Source of the DNA: Isoetes taiwanensis | Lineage: Eukaryota; Streptophyta; Lycopodiopsida; Isoetales; Isoetaceae | Assembly: GCA_021234155.1 (NCBI GenBank) | Contig: JAJEKV010000056.1 | Span: 3,083,330 to 3,147,329, forward strand | Reading direction: 5' to 3' | Length of the DNA stretch: 64,000 bases | Shown here: piece by piece, positions 17,799-26,314 of the stretch | Layout: each line of letters opens with the position of its first letter | Position numbering within the stretch: the first letter of the stretch is position 1 | The notes under the pieces: generated by a model | Seen by the model: only the letters and a program-made list of their open reading frames with translations | Database searches by the model: none | Told to the model about the DNA's origin: nothing | Program-made: the position numbers and the translations under genes

Positions 17799-19064
17799 CT
17801 AAGGACGCTCTCCCCGAATCCTGTGGGCCAGGGCCAAATCCTTTGGCATTATAGTGACTCTCTTTGCGTGGATAGCGCAAAGATTTGCATCACCAAAAAG
17901 TGCCATCAAGTAGGCTTCTGCAGCCTCTTGAAGTGCTAGAATGGCAAAAGTTTGGAAGCGGAGGTCGGTTTTGAATTCTTGGGCTATCTCCCGAACCAAC
18001 CTTTGAAAAGGCAGCTTCCGTATCAGAAGTTGCGTGGTCTTCTGGAACTTACGGATCTCCCGTAAGGCCACGGTACTGGGTCTGAACCGGTGGGGCTTCC
18101 TCGGTGGAGCAGGGTTAGGAGTCGGGCCCCTTTGCCGTGGTATCGTCTTGCCCCCAACGACAGGATGGGGCCTGGAAGCATCCACCCGCTCCTGCCTCCG
18201 GCTGGAACTCGCGTTCTTCCCAATAGCTCCGACAGTCTTCAACTTCTCCTTGTACTGACTGCCGGACTTATGGGCTACGGCTTTTCTCCGGTGTTTAATG
18301 GGCGTCCTGTCCGTCTGGTTTGGCCCCTGCTCTGTCTCTGGTCCCCCATTACCCTGCTGGTCCAGTTGTTCTTGTCGGGCCTTCTCCTCTTTTTCCCTTT
18401 GGATTCTTTCCTGTTCCTCCCGGAACTCTCGAGCTCTCTGGAGGTCGGCTTCAACCTCAGCGTACCGTCGTTCCACAATGCGACGAAGGAGTTCAGTGTG
18501 GTATCAATTGGGTCTCTGGCTCATGTCAATCTGGATTGTCGTCAAATAATCCAGACTGATGTCAGGAATGTCTCCCCACATGAAGCTCTGGGAAGCTTCA
18601 TGCCACTCAAATGGGGGGAGCTCGATTGCCCTGCCATCAATGACGGCGACGCCATCTCCTAAATACCTATACTCCCGACCTCGAGCCACCGTATCGGCTC
18701 GCTCCACCTCCCTGCGGTCATCTTCCCTGGCCAGGTTTCGGATACGGTCGGCCTCTGTTCTTATGTCCTCCTCCTCAGTGTGTCCCTCACATTCGGGAGG
18801 GTAAAATTTAATCAACATCATGACCAGATCAGGTTGCTCGGCCATGGTGTAAGGAAGCTGTCGGAGATTCAACCTAACCAAGAACTGCTCCGAGTAATGA
18901 TATATTGGATAGGGTATCCTAGCGTCGTTAGCAAATATGTTTACCAACTCATCTAGAAGTATGTCAATCAAGGCAGGGTCGGTAGCCATGTGTTGTGCGA
19001 TTAAGGCATAAATCTGGGCTATGGTGAGGGTAGCGGGGTCCACGGTACTCTTTTTGGTGGCCAT
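17799..19064 (-). pseudogene. Histone H3-fold fusion protein, interrupted by one in-frame TGA
   Basis: The ATG at 19064 (MATKKSTVDPATL) opens about 185 codons of unrecognised alpha-helical sequence. These end at a TGA at 18504-18506, and the same frame stays open after it to 17799. Next come a Glu/Arg-rich coiled coil (VERRYAEVEADLQRAREFREE) and a basic linker. The last 96 residues (17802-18089) are an H3 core: TVALREIRKFQ, LLIRKLPFQRLVREIAQ, FKTDLRFQ, LALQEAAEAYL, NLCAIHAKRVTIMPKD and RIRGERP. Loop 1 is of normal H3 length, so the core is H3-like rather than CENH3-like. Normal H3 has about 136 residues; this frame has about 420. The single TGA could be a nonsense mutation, a readthrough site or a sequence error. 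The gene sits between a poly(A)-like tract and an LTR leader. The H3 call is sure; the role is unknown. Confidence 0.85.
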
Positions 19065-19735
19065 AACTATGGCGCTGAGGTCTAAGGCGGCAGGCAGTGA
19101 GGCGCTTGCGGTTAGGAAGACGATAGGGGAGGCGCTAGGGGTAGAGGAGGCGGTAGGGAAAAAAAAAACCAAGGTGAAAGGGCAAGGTCGGGTCCGATAG
19201 CTATGGCGGGCGTCAGACCTAGCGGGCGGAGGCGCTATAAAACAAGGAAGGGGTAAAACGTTAACGGCCGCCTAACCCTTAAATTTCAAAAGTTTGCTTT
19301 TTTTTTTTTTTTTTTTTTAAATATTTATACTGCGGAAATATGCGCGAATATACGGTCGGGCGCCGACAGCATTATACGCGTTCCTACCACGACTGCAAGT
19401 CGATGAAAAGCAAGCGGTGCCCGGGTTGACTTTCGGGGCCCCTCCTTGACCTTTTTCTGCCTGCTGATGACCCTCCTAGGGTATTTGGAGTATGCCCGAC
19501 CCATTGGAACCACTTTCGCCTTCATCTGAGCTACCCACAAGGAGTTATGGCCCTTCCAACTCGGGTCCTCCAGTCGCCCTAAACTTCTTAGAAAATTTTC
19601 AATCTATTACATCAACCTAGCACAAAACCAAACAGCAAGGAGCTAAACAATCACACTAGCTTAAGCTCTCACCTAACTACCGAACTAACGAGTTAGGGTT
19701 TGGTCAGTGCTATGATTTCGAGTAACCGAAATCAC
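19065..19735 (-). other. Leader region between LTR primer site and H3-fusion gene
   Basis: About 670 bp without a convincing gene. It contains a second A-tract on the minus strand (19297-19318), flanked by AAATATTTATACTGCGG. That flank resembles the flank of the 17663 tract (AAATGATTTATTTATGCTG), as if two related polyadenylated 3' ends lay in tandem. The stretch next to the primer site is the expected position of an LTR-element leader. Confidence 0.4.
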
Positions 19736-19748
19736 GGCTCTGATACCA
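19736..19748 (-). other. Primer-binding site, initiator tRNA-Met type
   Basis: On the minus strand this reads TGGTATCAGAGCC, the usual plant retrotransposon primer site complementary to the 3' end of initiator tRNA-Met. The LTR end GGGAGCGTCACA lies one base upstream of it. It fixes the element's direction as minus strand, with the internal region towards the H3-fusion gene. Confidence 0.8.
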
Positions 19749-19749
19749 C

Positions 19750-24020: not shown

Positions 24021-24189
24021 AAGAATACCTAACATATACATCTAACAAGGATTTATTGCTGACATTGAATTCTAACAATTAATGAATATCATAGATGAAC
24101 ATTCATACAAAAGCAATTTCGTCATATGAAAACAATTGATACATTATAGAAAAGACAATTTATAGAAAAGACATTATATTAATACAAAA

Positions 24190-24880
24190 GTTTTTTAAGT
24201 ACATTTCCTTTTCTTGGCATCAGGGCCTGGAGTACCCGAATCAAATTCTTCTAAGTCCTCTACTCTTGCAAAGCCCAAGACAGAGCACTATCACGCTCAG
24301 ATTAATCCCGGCCTTGAGCATGGACACCATTGGTACTTGAAAGCACACATCTCTGTGAAGAAACGGAGAGCTATTGCTGCCATAAGGACGGGATCCCATT
24401 ACCTCAGAATTGAAACAGGTCGCTGGGGGGTGAATGGCGGGCACGGGATCCCCAGGGAGGAGAGGATATGTCAGTGTTGTGAGATGCACGTGATAGAGGA
24501 TGAGCACCATGCCCTCCAGCGGTGCCCAGCATATGCCCATGTCCGAGCAGTGCACACTGATCTTAGATGCTCTGACACACCGCTACATCAGTTACTCGCA
24601 TCACCTATGGTAGCACGACTGGGAGCTTACATCCTGCAGATTTCGGCCGTCAGACTTGCTCTTCGGGGGCATGGTATTTGAGAGCCTACCATTAGGGTTT
24701 TTCCTCCCAAGTGGGGGTTTTTTCATCCTGGTGTAGTAGGGATCTACTGTACAATTACATTGTTTGTTTTTGGTGTTGGGGTTTTTGGCTTTTTGCCTGT
24801 CTCTGCATGTACCATCTCATAGGCCTCTGGCCCGTGGACGTTAAAATAAACTTCCTTCCTTCCTTCCTTCCTTTACTCCA
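24190..24880 (+). mobile_element. 5'-truncated non-LTR retrotransposon 3' end, (CTTC)n-type tail
   Basis: The frame 24214-24681 ends with the C-terminal zinc-knuckle region of a LINE reverse transcriptase: RIETGRW, ERICQCCEMHVIEDEHHAL, CPAYAHVR. The non-coding 3' end reads CCCGTGGACGTTAAAATAAA and then (CTTC)n at 24848-24874. The EN and RT domains are missing. It separates array 2 from the 24911-26314 gene and probably inserted into the spacer between them. Confidence 0.75.
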
Positions 24881-24910
24881 GCCCCAATTGTATCTAATAG
24901 ATACAATATA

Positions 24911-26314
24911 TCAGGGTCCTTCTGTGCATGACAAACGAAGTGTTTCCTTGTCCACTCCACTCAAGCCTAGAGCTGCTTTATTTGCAAGGACAGAGTACAT
25001 TTTGAAGCCCCCGAAGACATACATTGCGATAGCCCTATCTACTGCTATAACTCGATCATAGTTTGCGGCTAGGGGCACGTGGTTGCCAGCTAAGGACAGA
25101 GCTTTAAGCTTGAGGACCTCCTGTACTCCAGATGGACTATATTTATTGTGAAACACAATAATTTCTCCCTTCTGAAGGTAGCCCATATAATGTGCAATAC
25201 TGGCGTCCCGACCTAGGGTGACTCTCTGATGCCTTGCACATAAGTCATCAATAAATAACTCCTGCATAAAGGAAACATCAGATTCAAGAAGAAATAAAAA
25301 ATGAAACCAGATAAATACCTCTCTCTTGTCCCGGTCGACAACAGCTGGGTTTGTTATTTTGAAAGAGGACTTCGACAGCTCACGTTCTATGAACACAGGA
25401 TCAGTGTTTGAAGAGCTAGCAGCTTCAAATTTGACATCTTTCACTGCTTCATACCCTGCTTCAGCTTGCTGCATGACAATTTCAAATGCATCCTCTGGAG
25501 GTATTGAGGATCCATCATAAGTCACAGCCTCCATCATTTGTCTGGGGACATCAGTCTCAAAGTCTATAAGTCCTCCCAGGCCTACAACATGCGCATATAT
25601 CTGGCCCAATATCTCGTCTTCTCTCAACCCTGTCACTTCAGATATGTCCGGCAGCAACAAGTATGGTTTCCCACCTACATGGATGGGATATGCTTCTGAT
25701 AGCCCCCAAGTAGACAATTTTTTCTCGGAGACCTCCTCTTCCACAACCTCGTTCTCCTCATTTTCCAGTACGAGCTTCTCTTCCTCAGGATCTATCGGCT
25801 CCTCTACTGGTGAGGCGAGGCGTTCTGTTTGAGCGACCTGTGCACTTGAAGAAGAACTGGCATCTTTGCTTGGCTTAGTGTAAATCATGTATGTGCTGAA
25901 CATGATATCTAGGCCGAAAAAACTTTCCTTGCCCTCTTGCCTGCACAGTTCTGCAGGTAGTTTCTTCAAGAACCTTCTAATTCGGTCTTGATCAGGTTTC
26001 GGAAACATCTTAAGAAAAGCTTGCATGCTTAGTGAAGGCAAACCAGTCACAGGACATGGTTTCACGTCAGGACCAGCTCCAGCCATGAAGCTATGAAGGA
26101 TGCCGCCATATGCATCAGTAAACCTGTTACACTCTGCCATAATGTCTACGCTCAGGCAAAAATTATTATATACAGTGGTTGCATCCACTGGCTCCTCTAG
26201 CTCCTCCTCGAACTCTTCAGGATGCTTCTGACGAAAATCCCGTTCTTTCTCCACTATTTTGTCATACCATGCGCTAAACAGCTCCCATGCCTTATCTGAC
26301 CCGCTATTTGCCAT
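24911..26314 (-). CDS. Large unrecognised protein with an H3-tail-like segment (about 447-467 aa)
   Basis: The ATG at 26314 (MANSGSDKAWELF) is preferred; the frame is open from 26383. An N-terminal helical region is followed by a Ser/Glu-rich acidic stretch and GKPYLLLPDISEVTG, which resembles GHEYLLLDDI of copies A and B. The segment ELFIDDLCARHQRVTLGRDASIAHYMG (25261 downward) aligns with H3 alpha-2 end to C-terminus (LFEDTNLCAIHAKRVTIM.KD..LA..I.G). A later RVIAVDRAIAMYVFGGF echoes the same pattern. A 57-bp GT-AG intron (25262-25318, ending TTTATGCAG) fits exactly between DKRE and ELFIDD; because it is a multiple of three, the frame is open with or without it. Uninterrupted, so possibly functional. 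Array 3 lies just upstream. The H3 link is an inference from one short segment. Confidence 0.65.
   Translation of the reverse strand: MANSGSDKAWELFSAWYDKIVEKERDFRQKHPEEFEEELEEPVDATTVYNNFCLSVDIMAECNRFTDAYGGILHSFMAGAGPDVKPCPVTGLPSLSMQAFLKMFPKPDQDRIRRFLKKLPAELCRQEGKESFFGLDIMFSTYMIYTKPSKDASSSSSAQVAQTERLASPVEEPIDPEEEKLVLENEENEVVEEEVSEKKLSTWGLSEAYPIHVGGKPYLLLPDISEVTGLREDEILGQIYAHVVGLGGLIDFETDVPRQMMEAVTYDGSSIPPEDAFEIVMQQAEAGYEAVKDVKFEAASSSNTDPVFIERELSKSSFKITNPAVVDRDKREVFIWFHFLFLLESDVSFMQELFIDDLCARHQRVTLGRDASIAHYMGYLQKGEIIVFHNKYSPSGVQEVLKLKALSLAGNHVPLAANYDRVIAVDRAIAMYVFGGFKMYSVLANKAALGLSGVDKETLRLSCTEGP

What the first reader, a model, noticed from the sequence alone, without database searches (positions are those of the whole stretch)
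17799..26314. Three different H3-related fusion proteins clustered within 9 kb on one strand
17799-19064 (H3-like), 22291-23692 (CENH3/H3-like behind a transposon-type domain) and 24911-26314 (segment LFIDDLCARHQRVTLGRDAS) share the H3 C-terminal pattern but have unrelated N-termini. I know of no described plant element that carries several histone-fold fusions. Repeated capture, or one ancient family with fast-evolving N-termini, would both be new.
Basis: partly seen in the sequence, partly recalled or inferred. Interest (0 to 1): 0.93.

Follow-up and report, generated by a model that had tools for sequence, protein, structure and literature searches.

The report
Retrotransposon carrying its own histone H3
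In this genome, which looks like a plant's, an abundant family of jumping genes carries a protein that ends in a well-preserved histone H3, the spool that DNA is wound on, and a second, more decayed kind of mobile element carries a different histone-H3-like protein, which makes it testable whether a jumping gene can bring its own chromatin parts.

Summary
Two of the three proteins are H3 fusions; the third is not. H3#1 (17799-19064, minus, one in-frame TGA) is ORF1 of a Ty3/gypsy LTR retrotransposon: the window holds its 5' LTR (21329-19750), primer site and ORF1. In the 1.66-Gb genome the family is large (897 exact LTR starts, 0 in the reversed control; thousands of unconfirmed first-look ORF1 candidates). 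One copy read in two adjacent stretches runs LTR - ORF1 (H3 fusion) - ORF2 - gag - protease - RT - RNase H - integrase - chromodomain - LTR. Three subfamilies share an N-terminal domain, a linker and an H3 core (one representative each: 84, 85, 88 of 99 identical to host H3), dN/dS about 0.035 in the core. So the H3 was kept by selection while the element moved. H3#2 (22294-23692) is a different, more diverged H3-like fusion with a charged insert in loop 1, in another multicopy element of unknown class with 57-bp palindrome arrays; it is now weakly constrained. The 24911-26314 protein belongs to that second element and has no detectable H3. Best mechanism (inferred): ORF1 pairs with host H4 and builds hybrid, tail-replaced nucleosomes on element or target chromatin, probably to resist silencing or steer integration.

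The parts
19750..21329 (-). 5' LTR of the H3#1 element (starts near TGTGACGTTCC-type, ends GCGTCACA)
   Evidence: Aligned with LTR starts and ends of genome copies; 3' LTR copies found in L030 and L031
19737..19748 (-). Primer binding site TGGTATCAGAGC (tRNA-Met type by recall), one base after the LTR
   Evidence: Exact 12-mer found in 15 of 24 fetched ORF1 loci
18507..19064 (-). ORF1, element-specific N-terminal domain (ATG at 19064)
   Evidence: 186 aa; 150 scored genome matches including itself, all E at most 2.1e-95, of 3373 first-look candidates
18504..18506 (-). In-frame TGA that breaks ORF1 in this copy
   Evidence: other copies of the same subfamily read through without a stop, for example L023 and L033
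17799..18503 (-). ORF1, basic linker and histone H3 core (ends RIRGERP)
   Evidence: Pfam Histone 2.6e-39; 83 of 99 identical to host H3 core
11079..12356 (-). ORF2 of the same element family, split from ORF1 by array DNA; a second partial copy lies at 1-1105
   Evidence: tblastn hits in 23 of 26 fetched loci, two of the 26 being right flanks
22652..23692 (-). H3#2 gene, N-terminal part (frame a)
   Evidence: 145 matched rows from 117 scored of 1565 first-look candidates
22533..22958 (-). H3#2 gene, basic linker and H3 helices aN-a1 (frame b)
   Evidence: 35.6 bits against the H3 profile; Pfam Histone 7.7e-4, under its cut-off
22319..22579 (-). H3#2 gene, charged loop-1 insert and helix a2 (frame a again)
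   Evidence: 32 bits; best PDB match S. pombe CENP-A by a small margin
22294..22362 (-). H3#2 gene, helix a3 and H3-like end (frame c)
   Evidence: 4th best of 2754 fragments, E 0.36; continuous with a2 in L037, L040, L041
24223..26314 (-). Gene 3 of the H3#2 element (no H3); split at about 24262-24866 by a LINE-like insert
   Evidence: 91 scored of 4652 candidates; L042 has the gene without the insert
21968..22158 (.). 57-bp palindromic tandem repeats after H3#2
   Evidence: palindrome half-sites on both sides of the gene in 6 of 6 fetched relatives
23780..24018 (.). 57-bp palindromic tandem repeats between gene 3 and H3#2
26394..26761 (.). 57-bp palindromic tandem repeats upstream of gene 3
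26888..28490 (-). Upstream part of the H3#2 element, with a sharp outer edge near 28490
   Evidence: 36 of 39 other scored copies begin at query position 205-211; one copy, L042, is alike only up to 27056

Best explanation
SHOWN: H3#1 is a copy, broken by one stop, of ORF1 of a large Ty3/gypsy LTR retrotransposon lineage. The lineage has two extra ORFs between the 5' LTR and gag, and ORF1 is an element-specific domain joined through a Q-rich or coiled and then basic linker to a full-length histone H3 core. SHOWN, on picked copies: the H3 core has been under strong purifying selection within three subfamilies. SHOWN: H3#2 is a separate, more diverged H3-like fusion in a second multicopy element, and the 24911-26314 protein is its H3-less neighbour gene. 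INFERRED: the ORF1 H3 part pairs with host H4 and enters hybrid nucleosomes in which the modifiable H3 tail is replaced by the element's own domain. INFERRED: the N-domain keeps these nucleosomes on element cDNA, element copies or the insertion target, so that the element escapes H3-tail-based silencing or prepares a landing site; the element's integrase chromodomain would be the reading partner.
For: Element structure: (LTRs, primer site, purine tract, TSD GTGGC at one copy, gag, protease, RT, RNase H, integrase, chromodomain). LTR-ORF1 linkage: of 14 ORF1 places that could be checked against the listed exact LTR starts, 7 have a 5' LTR start 2.3-2.6 kb upstream and 4 a 3' LTR start about 9 kb downstream (one has both), 4 have neither. 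Copy number: 897 exact LTR starts, reversed control 0. Selection: median dN/dS 0.035 in the H3 core (95 of 231 pairs usable), 0.093 in the N-domain (68), 0.177 in the linker (89), median dS 0.69-0.95, while LTR pairs differ by only 0.035-0.049. In alignment A1 (12 rows) H3 residues R69, R72, R83, H113, R116 and D123 (roles recalled) are invariant. The three ORF1 groups form one side of the tree (82/85) apart from host H3.
Against: No expression, protein or chromatin data. Loci were picked for long frames or high scores, which biases dN/dS down; L033 and L034 were picked by the N-domain, and the three C-group pairs stay at 0.01-0.05 in the core. Pairs between subfamilies mostly dropped out (dS saturated or 0.02 or less), so the figure is nearly all within subfamilies. 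Support for a single H3 origin is moderate. The window copy itself carries a stop and is cut up by array DNA. The H3 tail is not recognisable in the linker, so tail replacement rests on absence.
Confidence: 0.72

Rival explanations
1. The H3 part works outside nucleosomes: ORF1 is a nucleic-acid-binding or packaging protein of the particle, using a histone as a strong DNA/RNA binder.
For: ORF1 is the first ORF after the LTR, upstream of gag; histones bind nucleic acid tightly (established).
Against: The element already has a gag with a Ty3 capsid domain and a weak zinc-knuckle match. Selection keeps the whole H3 core, not only basic residues.
Confidence: 0.18
2. ORF1 tethers the integration complex to nucleosomes or centromeric chromatin (targeting), without being built into nucleosomes.
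For: The lineage has a chromodomain after the integrase, and CRM chromoviruses with their own type of chromodomain are targeted to centromeres (passages of PMC6317226).
Against: A tether would not need every H4-facing residue of H3; no insertion-site data were examined.
Confidence: 0.2
3. Passenger capture: a retrotransposon picked up an H3 gene by chance and amplified it with no function, as gene fragments in Pack-type elements.
For: TE capture of H3 is known in fungi, in one lineage with all copies dead (PMC6710886). The H3#2 family, with dN/dS 0.47-0.70 in its H3 part, is nearer to this picture.
Against: For ORF1: dN/dS 0.035 at dS near 0.7, three subfamilies keeping the same fusion; 36 of 135 scored non-canonical H3 matches lie in open frames of 400 aa or more.
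Confidence: 0.06
4. H3#1 is a LINE-made retrocopy of a host fusion gene (my own first reading, from the A19 tract at 17663).
For: A-tract and AATAAA after the stop; array copies have T8 at the junction.
Against: Genome copies carry LTR, primer site and ORF2 around ORF1, and L033 has an A-tract at the same point.
Confidence: 0.01

Closest known systems
Fungal hAT transposons with captured histone H3 (Pyrenophora, Pseudocercospora; PMC6710886, abstract and passages)
   Same: A mobile element captured H3 and amplified it to many copies
   Different: DNA transposon with separate H3-like sequences; in P. fijiensis all copies inactivated by RIP, in Pyrenophora several putatively active. Here: LTR retrotransposon, fusion ORF1, purifying selection on the H3 core, plant-like genome
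Helentrons with histone gene fragments in Culex (PMC4067079, passages)
   Same: Histone gene pieces inside a mobile element
   Different: Fragments of two histone genes (named there H4 and H15 superfamily) with stops and frameshifts
Plant LTR retrotransposons with additional ORFs (review PMC7264820, passages)
   Same: Extra ORFs conserved within a family of plant LTR elements
   Different: That review stresses ORFs between pol and the 3' LTR, and the word histone does not occur in its main text. Ogre-type ORF1 upstream of gag is recalled, not read
Plant chromoviruses (classification paper PMC6317226, passages)
   Same: Ty3/gypsy gag-pol with a chromodomain after the integrase
   Different: Two extra ORFs before gag, the first an H3 fusion; lineage not placed by an RT tree
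Bracovirus histone H4 with a long N-terminal tail (recalled)
   Same: A mobile or viral genome encoding a core histone with an extra N-terminal part, thought to alter host chromatin
   Different: Different histone, insects, different genome type; comparison is from memory

Membership tests
Ty3/gypsy LTR retrotransposon | Two similar LTRs, TG...CA ends, TSD, primer site, purine tract | tested here: met
   LTR pairs K2P 0.035 (L010/L030), 0.043 (L023/L031), 0.049 (L028); TSD GTGGC at L010. In the window only the 5' LTR was found
Ty3/gypsy LTR retrotransposon | gag-PR-RT-RH-INT in that order | tested here: met
   L010/L030: Ty3_capsid, RVP_2, RVT_1, RT_RNaseH, Integrase_H2C2 and rve (rve just under its cut-off there), SH3_Tf2-1. 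The L023/L031 frames scanned showed gag, RVP_2 and rve but no RT match. The window copy holds only LTR, ORF1 and ORF2 pieces
Chromovirus | Chromodomain after the integrase | tested here: met
   Pfam Chromo 1.2e-8 in one copy, in another frame than the integrase end there; other copies not checked, no lineage tree made
Histone H3 (H3#1 and ORF1 family) | Complete aN-a1-a2-a3 core with H3 sequence | tested here: met
   Pfam Histone 2.6e-39 (window), 3.2e-42, 2.6e-41 and 4.8e-39 (L010, L023, L033); 83-88 of 99 identical to host H3 in the four compared
Histone H3 | ARTKQTARKS-type N-terminal tail | tested here: not met
   No tail match clearly beyond shuffles in 7 linkers tested, best 49 of 1000
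Histone H3 (H3#2) | H3-type histone fold | tested here: met
   Pfam Histone 7e-17, 3e-14, 6e-15 in three relatives; by sequence only, no structure prediction was available
CENH3 | Groups with CENH3 rather than H3 | tested here: inconclusive
   H3#2 sits on a 1.6 branch outside both; best PDB hit of the a2 piece is CENP-A by 1.7 bits, of the L040 domain H3; plant CENH3 sequences were recalled
CACTA transposon (for the H3#2 element) | CACTA TIRs with 3-bp TSD | tested here: inconclusive
   No convincing TIR pair with TSD at the arrays, but the far end of the element was not seen; arrays only resemble subterminal repeats by recall
Histone H3 (24911-26314) | Any H3 helix by profile | tested here: not met
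   -0.5 bits, 62 of 3000 shuffles as good

The most novel reading that the evidence does not exclude
A lineage of LTR retrotransposons supplies its own replacement histone H3: the ORF1 protein is built with host H4 into tail-less hybrid nucleosomes on element DNA or at its target, defeating H3-tail-based silencing or marking insertion sites, in step with the chromodomain of the same element. A second element lineage tried the same trick independently with a far more diverged H3.
Probability: 0.4. Interest if true: 0.97.

Novelty: new variant of a known kind. Interest (0 to 1): 0.9.

Why it matters
Plants silence retrotransposons largely through marks on the H3 tail (general knowledge). A retrotransposon lineage that has kept its own H3 core, joined to its own domain in place of the tail, would be a direct counter-move written into the genome. 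It makes testable whether mobile elements change nucleosomes themselves rather than only reading them, and gives many natural variants of an H3 core selected in a selfish setting.

Tried and rejected
Rejected: retrocopy reading of H3#1 (overturned). H3 in the 24911-26314 protein (the C-terminal end in L042, shows no H3 pattern by eye). CACTA TIRs around the arrays: none convincing (one search gave one chance-like pair). A DUF8039-type N-terminus for H3#2 was recalled; Pfam gave nothing. Relatives in viral contigs: 6 scans, one distant viral H3. H3 tail remains in the linker. Neutral-drift simulations: at full divergence 1 of 500 runs for H3#1 (0 of 500 with more indels) and 0 of 500 for H3#2 had as few defects, but at a quarter of the divergence 205 of 500 and 40 of 500 did, and at half 46 and 1. 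They assume all divergence arose in this copy and are superseded. Close copies of the H3#2 family show dN/dS 0.47-0.70 in the H3 part (6 pairs) and 0.33-0.80 in the N-part (10 pairs), so it is now weakly constrained. An offset error for the first H3#2 segment was corrected. One search stopped with an error after printing its alignment part, which I use; the rest was redone. One search used part of the rows; redid it with all.
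Full report
WHAT THE WINDOW HOLDS. On the minus strand 17799-18476 encodes a histone H3 core (Pfam 2.6e-39). The frame continues upstream to an ATG at 19064 except for one TGA at 18504-18506. At 22294-22958 three collinear pieces in three frames match H3 helices aN-a1, a2 and a3; with H3#1 they are the four best of 2754 window fragments, though the a3 piece alone is weak (E 0.36). The third reported protein, 24911-26314, has no detectable H3: -0.5 bits in its best stretch, 62 of 3000 shuffles as good.

THE GENOME. Its transposons (LINE with zf-RVT, copia gag and RT) look plant-like; that it is a plant is inference. A search for Pfam Histone gave 8705 unconfirmed first-look candidates; 150 were scored and all passed the cut-off. 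15 of 150 match from model position 2, as canonical H3 would, and the 8 of these fetched (L002-L009) are full H3. The other 135 mostly start later in the model; 36 of the 135 lie in open frames of 400 aa or more. The window's ORF1 N-domain has 3373 first-look candidates, 150 scored, all E at most 2.1e-95; subfamily A ORF1 has 12537 candidates, 88 scored. Candidates that were not scored may be false.

H3#1 IS ORF1 OF A TY3/GYPSY ELEMENT. Twenty loci picked for long frames and six more stretches (four picked by the N-domain, two right flanks) show one design. The LTR is about 1.6 kb, followed by primer site TGGTATCAGAGC (exact in 15 of 24 ORF1 loci), a leader, ORF1, then ORF2; the purine tract AAGGAGGGGAGAA precedes the 3' LTR in the two copies where it was read. 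The window has this LTR at 21329-19750. L010 and its right flank L030 contain ORF1, ORF2, Ty3 capsid, a weak zinc knuckle, protease, RT, RNase H, integrase and a chromodomain, about 13.2 kb between outer LTR ends, TSD GTGGC. LTR pairs differ by K2P 0.035, 0.043 and 0.049 in three copies. The 25-base LTR start occurs 897 times exactly, its reversed control 0 times. Of 14 ORF1 places checkable against listed LTR starts, 7 have a 5' start at 2.3-2.6 kb, 4 a 3' start near 9 kb (one has both), 4 neither. ORF2 is found in 23 of 26 loci; in the window ORF2 pieces lie at 11079-12356 and 1-1105, separated from ORF1 by tandem-array DNA.

THE FUSION IS CONSERVED AND SELECTED. In the 20 loci ORF1 open frames are 428-494 aa. 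They fall into subfamilies A (12), B (7) and C (L023; also L033, L034 and the window in the tree), which share an N-domain (RIPYPIFHFNERFL...VEQ...YYLG...NLPTF), a variable linker, a basic stretch and the H3 core. Core identity to host H3, one representative each: A 84, B 85, C 88, window 83 of 99. Median dN/dS over all groups is 0.035 in the core (95 pairs), 0.093 in the N-domain (68) and 0.177 in the linker (89), at median dS 0.69, 0.95 and 0.92. 231 pairs were possible; the rest were dropped because dS was saturated or 0.02 or less, which removes most pairs between subfamilies. Per group the core gives 0.038 (A, 66 of 66 pairs), 0.019 (B, 21 of 21) and 0.037 (C, 3 of 3). In the tree the three ORF1 groups stand together (82/85) apart from host H3 and recalled CENH3, consistent with one capture of canonical H3, though not proved. 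Pfam on four ORF1 proteins (window, L010, L023, L033) finds the histone and only matches under cut-off besides.

H3#2. In three of six fetched relatives the H3 domain is uninterrupted, with a conserved charged insert of about 23 residues between a1 and a2 (Pfam 7e-17, 6e-15 and 3e-14). In the window copy read by frame, 42 of 86 aligned residues match H3.3, and H113 and R116 are changed; the three relatives keep both by eye. Palindrome half-sites lie on both sides of the gene in 6 of 6 fetched copies. Gene 3 precedes H3#2 within 4 kb on the same strand in 56 of 88 gene-3 places, 0 upstream, 0 on the other strand. Copies share an outer edge near 28490 (36 of 39) and L041 is collinear down to 21418, the end of its data, so the LTR element at 21329 probably landed inside. 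The class is unknown: no convincing CACTA ends, no transposase seen. Close copies show dN/dS 0.47-0.70 in the H3 part: weakly constrained now, unlike ORF1.

MECHANISM. Shown: anatomy, abundance, selection on picked copies. Inferred: because the H4-facing, H3-facing and DNA-facing residues are kept together (roles recalled), the H3 part most likely still works as a histone with host partners. The element already has a gag, so packaging is less likely to be the reason. A histone whose tail is replaced by an element domain, in an element with a chromodomain after its integrase, points to chromatin: resisting silencing or shaping the target. I put about 0.4 on hybrid nucleosomes, 0.2 on tethering only, 0.18 on packaging.

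NOVELTY. H3 capture by transposons is known in fungi (PMC6710886), histone fragments in Helentrons (PMC4067079), and extra ORFs in plant LTR elements (PMC7264820). None of the passages seen describes a conserved H3 fusion in an LTR element. My paper searches came before the LTR identification, so this is not a claim that nothing is in print.

Noticed in passing
1-17670: Tandem array of units spaced about 1.9-3.3 kb, inserted between ORF1 and ORF2 of the retrotransposon, with a larger duplication (1-6418 matches 11298-17670 at 97%).
   Followed up: partly
11079-12356 and 1-1105: ORF2 of the H3 retrotransposon, a second conserved protein of unknown function (no Pfam hit) between ORF1 and gag.
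   Followed up: partly
21968-22158, 23780-24018, 26394-26761: 57-bp tandem repeats with a palindrome (CGCACCGTGGCTACGGTGCG) between the genes of the H3#2 element; class of element unknown.
   Followed up: partly
24262-24866: LINE-like 3' end (by recall; no Pfam match) with a CCTT-type tail inserted in gene 3; L042 lacks it.
   Followed up: partly
about 25262-25318: A 57-base in-frame stretch in gene 3 with GT...AG ends just before the reported H3-like segment; intron or coding not settled; L042 has it too.
   Followed up: no
L001 1054-1338: A 4-kb viral contig (IMG/VR) with a diverged H3-like protein, 36% identical to the query.
   Followed up: no
28716-32456: Copia-type frames between 93% similar 386-bp direct repeats, beside the edge of the H3#2 element.
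   Followed up: no
62710-63945: Two neighbouring open frames without any Pfam match, the first with a signal-peptide-like start (by eye).
   Followed up: no
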